Positions 17,788-31,096 of a stretch of DNA of 64,000 nt are shown one piece after another. The DNA is from Artocarpus heterophyllus (Eukaryota > Streptophyta > Magnoliopsida > Rosales > Moraceae). Made by a program: the position numbers and the translations under genes. Position 1 is the stretch's first letter. Every line of letters starts with the position of its first letter. The notes under the pieces are model-generated. The model ran no database searches and was not told the origin of the DNA. It saw only the letters and a list, made by a program, of their open reading frames with translations. The stretch is from NCBI GenBank assembly GCA_025403435.1, contig CM046348.1, forward strand, positions 37,687,534 to 37,751,533, given 5' to 3'.

Positions 17788-18054
17788 ATTTCTAAAAACG
17801 CTTTATCTTCGATACTTGACAAAAACCAATTAACCGAAGAGAATTATAATGATTGGAAATGGAACATGGATATCATCCTCTCCTTGGAGAAACTGAAATT
17901 TTTTCTGACAATCCCTTGTCCTCCCGAGCCCACAGGAGATTCCACCATTTACCAATTTCAAGCGTACTATCGCTAGAAAGATGCAAATGATTAGGCCCAC
18001 TGCTTTGTTATGGCCAGCATGAATAACTTACTGCAGGCTCAACATGAGGATTAT
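17788..18054 (+). pseudogene. Cop3 gag N-terminus
   Basis: Corresponds to the Cop1 gag start, but the ATG is changed to ATT (17788-17790). It reads SKNALSSILDKNQLT and then gag with stops. It is interrupted after the codons for GlnHisGluAspTyr by the composite insertion at 18055, and the frame resumes at 29040 with the duplicated ATTAT. Confidence 0.85.
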
Positions 18055-18117
18055 TGATGTGTCCCACATCGGTTAGAGAGGGTGGTCTTGGGTGTTATAT
18101 ATACAGGTTCACAATCC
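18055..18117 (+). repeat. TRIM LTR, left part
   Basis: TGATGTGTCCCACATCGG... with a GTTATATATA box, 63 bp, cut by GyB1. With 21933-21980 it rebuilds a 111-bp LTR, the same length as the TRIM LTRs at 27993-28103 and 54874-54984. It is a miniature LTR element without coding capacity. Confidence 0.88.
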
Positions 18118-18907
18118 TGATAAGAACCTCGCCAATATACTAACGAAACCCGTTATCAATAAGAAGGAACCAAGACCGTTTCTACTCAGATTTGGATGGA
18201 AGTCACCACGACCCGTAGCTTATATCGAAGCAAGAACCTCGGTATATCGAAGACGCCACAATCAAGGATGGAAGCTTGATTGATAAGTCAGGTTTGAATG
18301 CCCGGATTGATCCGATGAGTTCGTGAAGTTCGTCAAAGAACCAAAGAAAGAATTTTCTCTCTCAGAAAAATAAACATTCATTGATTCTCCATTAACCTTG
18401 GGAATGCCTATTTATAGGCCAAAATTACAAAGTGTTGCCTAAAAAGAAAAGTTGACAAATTCAAACATAATTACTAAGCCTAAAATAAAAACCAAAAGAA
18501 AGGAAAGTCTTAATGGCTGATTTTCAGCCATTTACACGCCCAACAATAAAAGGAAAGTGCAATTAATCCTCGTCAACAATTTGCATAAATGATTAGCCGC
18601 GTGTGTGCCAAAATGGGAAGGTTTTCGAAAGTCTTCCATTGACTTGATCTTGCAAAATTTGAGCTGATTTCAATCAGGCTTGACTCATCCGGATTCTTCT
18701 AGAACTTGGATCAAATTGACGCACCGTTGTGGTTGACGTGGGCTTGGGTCAATGGGCTTGCACAAATTTTCTTGATTCTAGATTTCGTGAATCAGCCCAT
18801 TTAGTGCTTCCTTGAATTTCTTACCTCGGGCTCTTGTGACTGGTCCAACAGGAATTTGTATTGGGTCAACCACCTTCCATGCATTTGAGCTCCCTAAGTC
18901 TCTATCA
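18118..18907 (-). repeat. GyB1 3' LTR
   Basis: 790 bp, TGATAAGAACC to CTCTATCA on the plus strand. It encodes the pol C-terminal tail on the minus strand. Here the tail has a stop (TGG to TAG, about 18778) that the 5' LTR copy (21794-21800) lacks. Confidence 0.92.
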
Positions 18908-28141: not shown

Positions 28142-28474
28142 CTAGGTGAGTATGGTGTAAGTGCCTCCTTTAATGTTTCTGATCTAAGTCCTTTTGATGC
28201 AGGCGACGATTTGAGGACCAATCCCTCTCAAGAGGAGGGGAATGATAAGGACATCGTTAGCACAAGCAATAGCACGTGGGAGACATATTCAGATCCAATT
28301 CAAGTTCCCATTGGTCTGGTTACGAGAGCTCATGCGAAGAAGTTTAAAGAAACGCTTATTGGGCTGATTCAAGCAACTTGGGCTCAAGCCATTACATGGA
28401 GGCCCATTGAGGGAATTGCATGTGACATCCAGACCAACAAATGCGTGATTCAAGCTCTAGAAGGGATCGAGTAA
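28142..28474 (+). pseudogene. GyA2 pol C-terminal tail
   Basis: Frame open to TAA at 28472-28474: end of the integrase C-terminal domain, RTNPSQEEGND, then a tail encoded in the 3' LTR (from 28243) with PIGLVTRAHAKKFKETL. The tail is about 75 codons inside the LTR. All GyA and GyB copies keep this arrangement. Confidence 0.85.
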
Positions 28475-29039
28475 TTTCCATTTTAGTTACTTTCCCGTTT
28501 TGAGGTGACACATGGCGAGAAGAATCAGCTTATGACCTTTTAATGTCTAGTTTCCTTTTTGCATTTGTTTTATTTCTATTATTGTAAGGCTTTTAAGCCA
28601 TTAAGGGAACTTTCCTTATTTGCCTTAGATTTGACATTTGGTAATTGATTTGCCCGAAATTCCATGGGAAATTAGGAGCTGAATGCATAGGGGAACTCCT
28701 ATATATTGTAACAAATTTCATTCAATGGAATACAAGTTTTAACACACAATTTGAGGTTTAATTCTCTTTGGTTCCTAAACGAACTATTCGAACTTATCGA
28801 AAAATTTTGTGGCGTTCATAGACTTATCAATCAGTCCATCCATAGCTGATTATGGCGTCCTCACATACCAAGACTTATCAATCAGTCCATCCACAGCTGA
28901 TTGTGGAGTCCTCACATACCAAGGTTCGTGCTTCTTGTTGGGCATCGGGACACGGTTCCATCCAAAACTTGTTAGAAATTTTGATCTTGGAAACCAATCT
29001 TGGTTAGGGTCGCGTCAGCTCTTGGCGGGGTTCGTATCA
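28243..29039 (+). repeat. GyA2 3' LTR with 51-bp duplication
   Basis: 797 bp, TGATAAGGACATCG to GGGTTCGTATCA. It contains the 51-bp tandem duplication (28820-28870 and 28871-28921) also present in the solo LTR at 1030-1831. Its right flank ATTAT matches the left flank of the TRIM LTR at 18055. Confidence 0.92.
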
Positions 29040-31096
29040 ATTATGAGACTGCTAAGTAGATCTTGGATAATCTAGTAGACATGTTTGGAGGCCAGGCCCT
29101 AACAAAGTGGCAAAGGGCGCTTCGAAAACTCTTAAACTGTTAGTAGAGGCCGGGGACATCTGTAAAGGAGCACATGATGTTGGTCATGGGGTACCTCGCT
29201 GAGGCTTAAACCAATAGAGCCGACATCGATGCTGAAACTTAGATGACTATGGTATTTGAGACTCTGTCAAAGGAATTTATTATGTTTAGAGCTACTTTTA
29301 ATTTGAGCAAGAGACGGGATATGACCTTAATAAAATTAATGAAACAGTTATAGGAGTTCGAACTGCTGATCAGGGAGTCTCCTGCGGGTGGCGAGACCAA
29401 CTTGGTACTGCTTCTGGTTCCAATCCCAATTTTGGGAATGGAAAGAAATAACGGGGCCAAAAATGGGAAGCCTTTTGTTCTTGCTAACAACAAAAGCAAG
29501 AAGAAGAAAAAGAAGAACCCAAAGAAGCTTAAGTGCTTCTTCTGTGGGAAGGTCGGGCACATCAAGAAATATTTAGAAACTTGTTTAATTAAGGAATCCA
29601 TGACATTTGGGTCATAGATTTCGATGCAACTAATTATGTTTGTGTTTCTTTGTAGGGGTTCAAAGAAACTAGAAGTCTACTTCATGAAGACTTCATGCTT
29701 CGGATGGGCGATAGATCCTTAGTCTTGGCAGAAGCAGTGGGAGACATCCATATTTATTTTGATAATTATAGGAATTTAATTTTGCAAGATTATTTTTATG
29801 TTCCTAAATTTAAAAGGAATTTAATTTTTGTAGCTTGTTTATTTACAGACACCTATTTGGTTTCTTTTAACAATAAAGTAGTAATTCGTAAAAACAAATC
29901 TTTTTTCTGATCTAGATGGATGCAAAATAATCTATATTTTATCAAACCTAAGATGGACTTACTGCTTAATGCTGAGATGAATGATAATAACTCTAAAAGA
30001 CTTAAAACTTCTCACTCTAATAAGACTTATCTTTGGCATTTGTGCTTTGGTTATATTAACTTGAATAAGATTCAAAGGCTGGTAAGGGATGGACTTTTAA
30101 GTCACTTAAAGGTGAAATCTATATCTCAATGTGAATCTTATTTAGAGGGTAAAATGACCAAAAGACCATTCAGGTCTAATAGGGTCGAAGGGGTTCTAGA
30201 ACTTATGCATAATGATGTTTGCGGACCGATGAACATCCGAGCACGAGGAGGGTATGAGTACTTTGTCATTTTTATTGACAATTACCCAAGATATAGGTAT
30301 GTATACCTGATGCACCACAAAAGCGAAACTTATGATAAGTTCAGGGAGTTTTAGGCTGAAGTAGAAAAACAACTAGGTAGACCCATAAAGGCTCTTCGAT
30401 CCGATCGAGGTGGTGAATACCTTTCTGATGAGTTTCTGAGACACTTATTAGAGAATGGGATTTTATCCCATTTGACTGCACCAGGCACTCCGCGGCATAA
30501 TGGCGTACTAGAGAGAAGAAGTAGAACTTTATTGGACATGGTTAGGTCCATGATGAGTTATTCATCATTGCCTTTATCCTTTTGGGGATATGCATTACAA
30601 ACCGCATGTTATCTTTTGAACAATTTGCCTTCAAAATCAGTCCCTAAAACTACTCACGAGTTGTGGATGGGCAAGAAGACATCTTTAAACTATAGTCGCA
30701 CATGGGGATGTCTGATTCATGTCTTGTTTAAGGATGTGAATAAGTTGGGAGCAAGTTCGGAAGTTTGCATATTTATAGGATATCCAAAAGGGACTAAAGG
30801 GGATTATTTCTATAACTCAAGCGAAAATAAAGTCGTGGTTTCAACTAATGCAACTTTTCTTAAGGAGAGTAACATGGACGACTTTAAGCCTCGAAGCAGA
30901 GTGGTGCTAGAGAAATTAAGGAGTGATCCAATCACTCCAGAGTTTCCAAATGAAACCATTCTGATCATTGTAGAAAAACCAAACGAACCTGAACAACAAC
31001 CTAAGGTGCTTTGGCATAGTGGGAGGATCAGGCGTCAACTTAAGACAGGGATCCTTATACTTACGCAAAGGCTATGGAGAATGTTGATTTGAAACT
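29040..31096 (+). pseudogene. Cop3 gag-protease-integrase
   Basis: Continuation of the gag cut at 18054: YETAK, then stops, the zinc knuckle CFFCGKVGHIKK (about 29537-29572), and a protease with VIDFDATNYV where Cop1/Cop2 have DSSA/DSGA. Integrase follows (29920-31092) with most of the HHCC and DDE regions but with stops and frameshifts. Near 31035 a deletion removes about 20 codons, and the copy ends at 31096 against minus-strand GyB2 pol. RT, RNase H and the 3' LTR are missing. Confidence 0.85.

What the first reader, a model, noticed from the sequence alone, without database searches (positions are those of the whole stretch)
18050..29044. One target duplication encloses two different LTR families: TRIM at the left, GyA at the right
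ATTAT at 18050-18054 and 29040-29044 flanks an insertion whose left end is a TRIM LTR and right end a GyA LTR, and the interrupted copia gag codons rejoin exactly. Normal reverse transcription gives identical LTRs. The crossover is in the primer site: the two-base spacer TA is TRIM, and everything after the shared TGGTA (21983-21987) is GyA. This is what would result if TRIM plus-strand strong-stop DNA transferred onto a GyA minus-strand cDNA at the primer site, and GyA integrase then inserted the hybrid. The extra GyA LTR fragment at 22183 needs another event.
Basis: partly seen in the sequence, partly recalled or inferred. Interest (0 to 1): 0.88.

Follow-up and report, generated by a model that had tools for sequence, protein, structure and literature searches.

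The report
Two-family hybrid retrotransposon, one insertion
In this plant genome, jumping genes that begin with the end repeat of one family and finish with that of another sit between single target-site duplications at several places, so a tiny gene-less element (a TRIM) and a gypsy retrotransposon were likely spliced together while being copied and would share one insertion machinery.

Summary
Observation confirmed. 18055-29039 lies between one 5-bp duplication (ATTAT), with a TRIM LTR at its left end and a Ty3/gypsy (GyA) LTR at its right; two copia paralogs in the window show the gap-free empty site. It is not a one-off: the genome holds 35 matches (<=2 mismatches) to a TRIM-LTR/GyA-primer-site junction, about three of them probably plain GyA. 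Of 30 fetched, window included, both outer ends were read in 14: 11 have a perfect 5-bp duplication, three none. Six of the 11 have unlike ends (four TRIM-left/GyA-right, two mirror images). The arrays fit a simple grammar: one leading LTR, then modules [interior + its own LTR], exchanged at the LTR-end/primer-site stretch both families share. The 'extra' GyA LTR is then the middle LTR of a tandem whose first interior is deleted. The left LTR and the TRIM captured in this element's pol share a haplotype found in 4 of 611 TRIM LTRs. Joining during reverse transcription, then integration, is favoured, not proven; recombination of free cDNA with a resident LTR is not excluded. The exact primer-site crossover rests on one base and is not the rule elsewhere. 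New variant of known template-switch/tandem elements.

The parts
18050..18054 (.). left target-site duplication ATTAT
   Evidence: empty site in two paralogs
18055..18117 (+). TRIM LTR, positions 1-63 (left end of the hybrid)
   Evidence: 98% to the TRIM LTR inside the element
18113..18117 (.). AATCC, duplication of the nested GyB insertion (left copy)
18118..21927 (-). later nested element GyB, gypsy-type by similarity to GyA pol, inverted; LTRs 18118-18907 and 21138-21927
   Evidence: LTR pair 96.8% identical
21928..21932 (.). AATCC, right copy
21933..21980 (+). TRIM LTR, rest
21981..21982 (+). spacer TA (TRIM-like; GyA has TT)
21983..22178 (+). GyA primer site (TGGTAATCAGAGC) and purine-rich leader, first copy
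   Evidence: 94-95% to GyA leaders in the window
22179..22828 (+). GyA LTR lacking about 100 bp at its 5' end: middle LTR of a tandem; its junction with the leader was matched in full only here
22829..23030 (+). second GyA spacer TT, primer site and leader
   Evidence: 93.3% to the first leader
23031..27841 (+). GyA gag-pol: Retrotrans_gag, CCHC knuckle, RVT_1, RNase H, integrase zinc-binding and core domains (Ty3/gypsy order); frames broken
   Evidence: Pfam; ORFs
27842..28103 (+). TRIM captured inside pol: last ~40 bp of one LTR, primer site, interior, complete LTR 27993-28103; left join at a GCTA(G) microhomology
28104..28139 (+). filler made of TRIM-like scraps at the right edge of the captured TRIM
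28140..28242 (+). GyA 3' end of pol and purine tract (AAGAGGAGGGGAA)
28243..29039 (+). GyA 3' LTR (right end of the hybrid)
   Evidence: outside the young GyA2 clade
29040..29044 (.). right target-site duplication ATTAT

Best explanation
The stretch 18055-29039 lies between the two copies of one 5-bp target-site duplication, begins with a TRIM LTR and ends with a gypsy (GyA) LTR, and was likely made when a DNA copy of a TRIM LTR was joined during reverse transcription to a GyA cDNA at the short LTR-end/primer-site sequence that both families share, the product then likely being inserted in one piece by the GyA integrase. Shown: the duplication and a gap-free empty site; the join within the shared stretch GGGTTyATATCATaTGGTA; the same architecture with other duplications at other loci. 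Inferred: TRIM and GyA RNAs packaged together; the TRIM LTR supplied as plus-strand strong-stop DNA, from a free TRIM RNA or from a TRIM already inside a GyA RNA; joining at the primer site or, in most other copies, a few bases upstream within the LTR end; recognition of both ends (TGATG...TATCA) by one integrase. The GyA part was likely itself a tandem (leader, middle LTR, leader, gag-pol) whose first interior was lost by deletion before or after insertion.
For: Perfect ATTAT duplication and empty site. 35 matches genome-wide to the TRIM-LTR/GyA-primer-site junction, 0 with the reversed pattern; the 30 fetched all show TRIM LTR sequence running into a GyA leader, and 29 of 30 reach gag within the 3-kb locus. 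Of 14 elements with both outer ends read, 11 have a perfect duplication: TRIM-left/GyA-right at the window (ATTAT), L015/L048 (GGCCC), L027/L059 (CAAAA), L035/L043 (CGGTG); GyA-left/TRIM-right at L033/L041 (CATTC), L010/L070 (AAGAG); GyA at both ends, L023/L062 (TAAGC); TRIM at both ends, L046/L066 (ATAGG), L030/L071 (ATGGG), L042 (ATTAG, left end inverted), L024/L054 (AAGAC, right end inverted). Apart from TRIMs captured inside pol and inverted pieces, the arrays parse as one leading LTR plus modules in which an interior is followed by its own LTR; only the LTR before a primer site is exchanged, as expected if joining happens there. A composite has transposed recently: the outer LTRs of L023/L062 are 99.87% identical. 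Left LTR and the TRIM in pol share a haplotype present in 4 of 611 TRIM LTRs matching the scored 35-bp stretch exactly, and alone of those four share a third variant.
Against: 3 of 35 TRIM-LTR/GyA-primer-site matches keep the spacer of the LTR donor, and 7 of 13 distinct GyA-LTR/TRIM-interior junctions do, so a strict primer-site transfer does not explain most copies. The window crossover is placed by one base. No duplication at L044, L018/L051 and L012/L040; the outer LTRs of L012/L040 are only 91.5% alike and in different clades, so it looks recombined after insertion. 16 of the 30 loci are not resolved at both ends. Recombination of free cDNA with a resident LTR would leave the same duplications. 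Leader 1 versus 2 (93.3%) and middle versus right LTR (93.0%) show that several GyA copies contributed, more than one simple event.
Confidence: 0.6

Rival explanations
1. Integrase-independent recombination: a free GyA cDNA or one-LTR circle recombined with a TRIM (solo) LTR already resident at this site, at the shared LTR end; the duplication is that of the older TRIM. Adding a TRIM or GyA circle to either LTR of a resident element would generate the array types seen.
For: Arrays such as TRIM LTR+TRIM interior+TRIM LTR+GyA interior+GyA LTR (L035/L043) and GyA..TRIM (L033/L041, L010/L070) are what circle insertion into the last LTR predicts. Crossovers are spread over the ~20-base homology. 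PMC11899658 (passage) says that yeast elements can form tandems by an integrase-independent route; the Ty5 work that I take to be behind it is recalled.
Against: The shared stretch is only about 12 bp at a final LTR (GGGTTcATATCA) and about 25 bp with mismatches at a primer site, short for homologous recombination (general knowledge). The window needs a solo TRIM LTR first. At least one composite clearly retrotransposed as a unit (L023/L062).
Confidence: 0.2
2. Derived in cis from a composite lineage: a GyA that already carries a TRIM between its 5' LTR and primer site (GyA LTR-TRIM interior-TRIM LTR-GyA interior-GyA LTR) starts plus-strand DNA at the internal TRIM purine tract, so that the TRIM LTR becomes the left end.
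For: Such composites exist in a young clade (5' LTRs of L010, L012, L019, L023) with one complete copy and duplication (L023/L062). Three of the TRIM-left/GyA-right copies (L015/L048, L027/L059, L035/L043) have right LTRs of this clade (0.974) and its TT spacer.
Against: For the window: its right LTR is outside that clade (its own placement is unsupported, 0.081), its leader is closer to the GyA1 type and its spacer is TA. The model must also explain how the minus strand ends at the TRIM LTR.
Confidence: 0.13
3. Two separate insertions (a TRIM and a GyA), each with its own duplication, later fused by a deletion or recombination.
For: Such fusions outnumber template-switch complexes in Triticeae sequence, 20 to 2 (PMC1950507, passage); three elements here, L044, L018/L051 and L012/L040, have no duplication.
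Against: One shared 5-bp duplication and a gap-free empty site at the window, and single duplications at ten other elements of the set. It would need the TRIM to land on the same 5 bp.
Confidence: 0.04
4. Assembly artefact in a repeat-rich region.
For: The window is dense with repeats, and a 6.1-kb stretch is repeated in tandem at 99.6%.
Against: A later GyB insertion with its own duplication sits inside the left LTR, and the architecture recurs on several contigs.
Confidence: 0.03

Closest known systems
Template-switching complex insertions in Triticeae, rice and maize (Sabot & Schulman 2007, PMC1950507; abstract and passages seen)
   Same: Three LTRs, one 5-bp duplication around the whole, explained by abnormal template switching before integration.
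   Different: There the two outer LTRs are highly similar and of one family; here they come from two families that share only their ends and primer site.
Tandem LTR-retrotransposons sharing internal LTRs (Morales-Diaz et al. 2025, PMC11899658; abstract, passages and section 10 seen)
   Same: Alternating LTRs and interiors, 5-nt duplications at some, gypsy-rich, mechanism unsettled.
   Different: Those tandems, as far as seen, repeat one family each; here TRIM and GyA modules alternate and the ends can differ.
Tandemly arrayed TRIMs and Cassandra arrays (Gao et al. 2016, PMC4717578; Kalendar et al. 2020, PMC7215508; passages seen)
   Same: TRIM LTR-interior-LTR arrays occur here too (L013, L026, L027, L029).
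   Different: A coding gypsy module is spliced into the arrays. In Gao et al. only 11 of 289 TRIM subfamilies had a related larger element (passage).
LTR swapping between autonomous and non-autonomous partners in soybean (Du et al. 2010; not held; title seen in a reference list; content recalled)
   Same: Exchange of LTRs between an autonomous and a non-autonomous family.
   Different: As recalled, swapped elements have matching LTR pairs; here single copies carry unlike ends.
ONSEN inter-member recombination in bursts (PMC5668417; start of abstract and three passages seen)
   Same: Recombination between members during transposition bursts.
   Different: Within one family.

Membership tests
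LTR-retrotransposon insertion as a single event | Perfect 5-bp target-site duplication at both outer ends | tested here: met
   ATTAT; empty site in two paralogs
LTR-retrotransposon insertion as a single event | Outer LTRs belong to one family and are near-identical at insertion | tested here: not met
   Left TRIM LTR of 111 bp, right GyA LTR of 797 bp
Template-switching complex (Sabot & Schulman type) | Internal third LTR | tested here: met
   GyA LTR 22179-22828, lacking about 100 bp at its start
Template-switching complex (Sabot & Schulman type) | Outermost LTRs similar | tested here: not met
   different families
Template-switching complex (Sabot & Schulman type) | Two complete internal regions | tested here: not met
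   first interior reduced to primer site and leader, 21983-22178
Ty3/gypsy (GyA part) | Domain order gag, RT, RNase H, integrase | tested here: met
TRIM (left LTR and captured copy) | Short LTRs around a short non-coding interior with primer site and purine tract | tested here: met
   111-bp LTR, ~118-bp interior; free copies L002, L003, L075. Lack of coding capacity was not tested beyond the length
TRIM mobilised by GyA | Same termini and primer site as the helper | tested here: met
   both begin TGAT and end TATCA; both primer sites begin TGGTA; GyA has one extra A
TRIM mobilised by GyA | TRIM RNA or cDNA found in GyA particles | not testable with these tools
   needs plant material

The most novel reading that the evidence does not exclude
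TRIM and gypsy form one modular replicating system: any LTR can be put in front of any primer site during shared reverse transcription, so arrays of TRIM and GyA modules with like or unlike ends are made, integrated and in one lineage (GyA2) amplified. In this system a TRIM physically captures its own helper, and elements with two different terminal repeats are normal integration substrates.
Probability: 0.42. Interest if true: 0.85.

Novelty: new variant of a known kind. Interest (0 to 1): 0.7.

Why it matters
Identical outer LTRs are a textbook mark of an LTR-retrotransposon insertion and the basis for finding and dating copies. Elements with unlike ends and one duplication break that rule, and software that requires matching LTRs would be expected to miss them. 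They also bear on an open question: which element moves TRIMs? PMC4717578 (passages) says that no autonomous element had been reported for any TRIM before it, and found none for 278 of its 289 subfamilies. Here a TRIM is joined to a gypsy family again and again, inside units with single duplications, which names a candidate helper that can be tested by looking for TRIM and GyA RNA in the same particles.

Tried and rejected
Rejected: separate insertions fused later (one duplication, empty site). Rejected: that the window hybrid is a copy of the young GyA2 composites (LTR tree; different spacer), though its own placement is unsupported. Rejected: that the leader/LTR junction at 22178 marks a spreading family (full-length match only here; only 40 of 980 candidates were scored). 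Considered and left open: that the left LTR was copied from the TRIM captured in pol. The two share a rare haplotype, but a free TRIM on C24 (L075) shares T67, A90 and T105 with the left LTR, so a free TRIM of that sublineage may equally be the donor. The sample of TRIM LTRs was biased, because the captured TRIM was the query; the genome counts do not have that bias.

Capture in pol: the exact left join was found only in the window (12 places with up to 3 mismatches). Two of the other 11 were fetched: L076 is a TRIM array; L077 on C213 has a TRIM joined at the same pol site, by shared ancestry or a second event. The remaining nine were judged from the matched letters only and look like TRIM LTR variants.

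No use: viral contigs (0 matches). A gag tree put the hybrid interiors in at least two deep groups, without enough plain GyA copies to count origins. The GyA-LTR/TRIM-primer-site pattern (511 places) also takes in GyA copies whose primer site lacks the extra A, so it is not a count of hybrids. Not obtained: the genome count of plain GyA junctions with their spacers, and a cleaner count of GyA-LTR/TRIM-interior junctions (tool busy). Both outer ends were not read for 16 of 30 loci: L009, L011, L013, L014, L016, L017, L019, L020, L021, L025, L026, L028, L029, L031, L032, L037 (nested insertions, truncations, a contig end, or not fetched). In one search two rows (L010, L023) were printed as 'no' because of an off-by-one start; one search corrects them. 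L024/L054 (duplication) and L012/L040 (none) were added.
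Full report
WHAT IS THERE. The host of the insertion is a copia element. Its flanks, joined with a single ATTAT, align without a gap to two copia paralogs elsewhere in the window, so 18055-29039 (10,985 bp) went in as a unit or grew from something that did. Left to right: TRIM LTR (split by a later inverted GyB element with its own AATCC duplication), spacer TA, GyA primer site and purine-rich leader, a GyA LTR lacking about 100 bp at its start, a second GyA primer site and leader, gag-pol of Ty3/gypsy order, a TRIM captured in the 3' part of pol, the GyA 3' end and a full GyA LTR, then ATTAT. 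'TRIM', 'GyA', 'GyA1', 'GyA2' and 'GyB' are working names.

IT RECURS. The window lies in a 985-Mb assembly. A pattern of TRIM LTR end plus GyA primer site is matched 35 times with up to 2 mismatches, 0 times by the reversed control; three of the two-mismatch places look like plain GyA LTR ends. 30 of the 35 were fetched, the window among them; all 30 show TRIM LTR sequence running into a GyA leader, in L014 and L034 only the last 38 bp of the LTR. Plain TRIM LTR/TRIM primer-site junctions number 819 at the same stringency; in the listed part (about 100 places, all without mismatch) all but four have spacer TA.

ENDS AND DUPLICATIONS. Both outer ends could be read for 14 of the 30; 11 have a perfect 5-bp duplication and three (L044, L018/L051, L012/L040) do not. 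Six of the 11 have unlike ends: TRIM-left/GyA-right at the window (ATTAT), L015/L048 (GGCCC), L027/L059 (CAAAA), L035/L043 (CGGTG); GyA-left/TRIM-right at L033/L041 (CATTC) and L010/L070 (AAGAG). One has GyA at both ends, L023/L062 (TAAGC). Four have TRIM at both ends: L046/L066 (ATAGG), L030/L071 (ATGGG), L042 (ATTAG; the left end is an inverted TRIM LTR end) and L024/L054 (AAGAC; TRIM LTR-GyA interior-GyA LTR followed by an inverted TRIM). The other 16 of the 30 are unresolved.

GRAMMAR. Writing G for [GyA primer site-interior-GyA LTR] and T for [TRIM primer site-interior-TRIM LTR], the arrays are a leading LTR plus modules: t+G, t+T+G, t+G+T, g+T+G, g+T+G+T, besides plain t+T and g+G. Apart from TRIMs captured inside pol (window, L077, L069) and inverted pieces (L024, L035, L042), an interior is followed by its own LTR; what varies is the LTR in front of a primer site. 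In this grammar the window is t+Gs+G, Gs being a GyA module reduced to leader and most of its LTR. That deletion junction was matched in full only in the window. The two leaders are 93.3% and the middle and right LTRs 93.0% identical, gaps left out, so they come from different GyA copies rather than a recent tandem duplication.

WHERE THE JOIN LIES. TRIM and GyA share GGGTTC[A/G]TATCAT[A/T]TGGTA. Of the 35 matches, three have spacer TA (window, L025, L033) and 32 TT. Among junctions in the fetched loci and the window, identical sequences counted once, TRIM LTR/GyA interior has TT in 23 and TA in 3; GyA LTR/TRIM interior has TT in 7 and TA in 6. So 10 of 39 keep the spacer of the LTR donor, as transfer at the primer site predicts; in 29 the join is upstream, within the LTR end, or the spacer changed. 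Copies related by descent are counted separately.

SOURCE OF THE LEFT LTR. The left LTR and the LTR of the TRIM captured in pol share two variants (T67, A90) found together in 4 of 611 TRIM LTRs that match the scored 35-bp stretch exactly. The other two are a lone LTR (L008) and a free TRIM on C24 (L075). The two in the window also share A51; the C24 TRIM shares T105 with the left LTR only. One TRIM sublineage likely supplied both TRIM pieces of this element, which is what co-packaging in one particle would give, though descent in steps is possible.

AGE AND INDEPENDENCE. GyA2 LTRs (about 800 bp, ending GTGGTTCRTATCA) form a clade (support 0.974) that holds the 5' LTRs of composites (L010, L012, L019, L023) and the right LTRs of three TRIM-left/GyA-right copies (L048, L059, L043); outer LTRs of L023/L062 are 99.87% identical, so a composite moved recently. 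Against this, L012/L040 has outer LTRs 91.5% alike, in different clades, and no duplication. The window's right LTR is outside the GyA2 clade and the two GyA LTRs of L033/L041 form their own pair (0.955), so unlike ends probably arose in three GyA lineages; the window's exact position is unsupported (0.081).

MECHANISM. Favoured: joining during reverse transcription in shared particles at the common LTR-end/primer-site stretch, then ordinary integration. Shown: single duplications, the join site, recurrence, recent transposition of a composite. Inferred: co-packaging, strong-stop transfer, GyA integrase. Main rival: recombination of free cDNA or circles with resident LTRs, which the duplications cannot exclude. 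For GyA2 copies, initiation at the internal TRIM purine tract is an attractive variant.

LITERATURE. Single-duplication complexes with like outer LTRs are known (PMC1950507, abstract and passages), as are tandem LTR-retrotransposons (PMC11899658, abstract, passages and one section) and TRIM arrays (PMC4717578, PMC7215508, passages). A 2025 review states that strand transfer lets different but related RNAs in one particle recombine (PMC12786077, passages). The listings of eight searches showed no report of single-duplication elements with outer LTRs of two families; the library lacks most subscription papers, including Du et al. 2010 on LTR swapping in soybean.

Noticed in passing
window 42525-48651 and 48646-54773: A 6.1-kb stretch containing a copia copy is repeated in tandem at 99.6% identity; its join lies in a TRIM remnant (48610-48651).
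   Followed up: partly
window 54732-54982: A TRIM (last 27 bp of one LTR, interior, almost complete LTR) joined to a gypsy gag at a GTGGAGTTA microhomology, no duplication seen; the right side abuts an inverted GyA gag.
   Followed up: partly
L077 (C213:93200-94500): Another GyA with a TRIM joined at the same pol site (ACAAGCTAG microhomology) as in the window; the TRIM LTRs differ at 6 of 111 positions. Shared ancestry or a second capture at a hotspot.
   Followed up: partly
L069 (C22:33194600-33198400): A further TRIM fragment (LTR 57-111, interior, LTR) joined inside GyA pol of the L021 element, followed by an inverted TRIM.
   Followed up: no
L014, L034/L042, L024/L054: TRIM LTRs standing head to head or inverted at one end of TRIM-LTR/GyA elements; L042 has duplication ATTAG and L024/L054 AAGAC around the whole.
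   Followed up: partly
L028, L030: The left TRIM LTR carries a tandem duplication of its first 14 bp (TGATGTGTCCCACA) at two places with different flanks, suggesting a subfamily.
   Followed up: no
G000 C2:6231753-6297703: Dense cluster of TRIM LTRs over about 65 kb in the listings, with near-regular spacing in places.
   Followed up: no
window 1030-1831: Solo GyA LTR with TACAT on both sides.
   Followed up: no
window 21983, 22831, 9720: The GyA primer site reads TGGTAATCAGAGC, one A longer than TRIM's TGGTATCAGAGC (the initiator-tRNA-Met type, recalled); some GyA-like matches lack the A.
   Followed up: no
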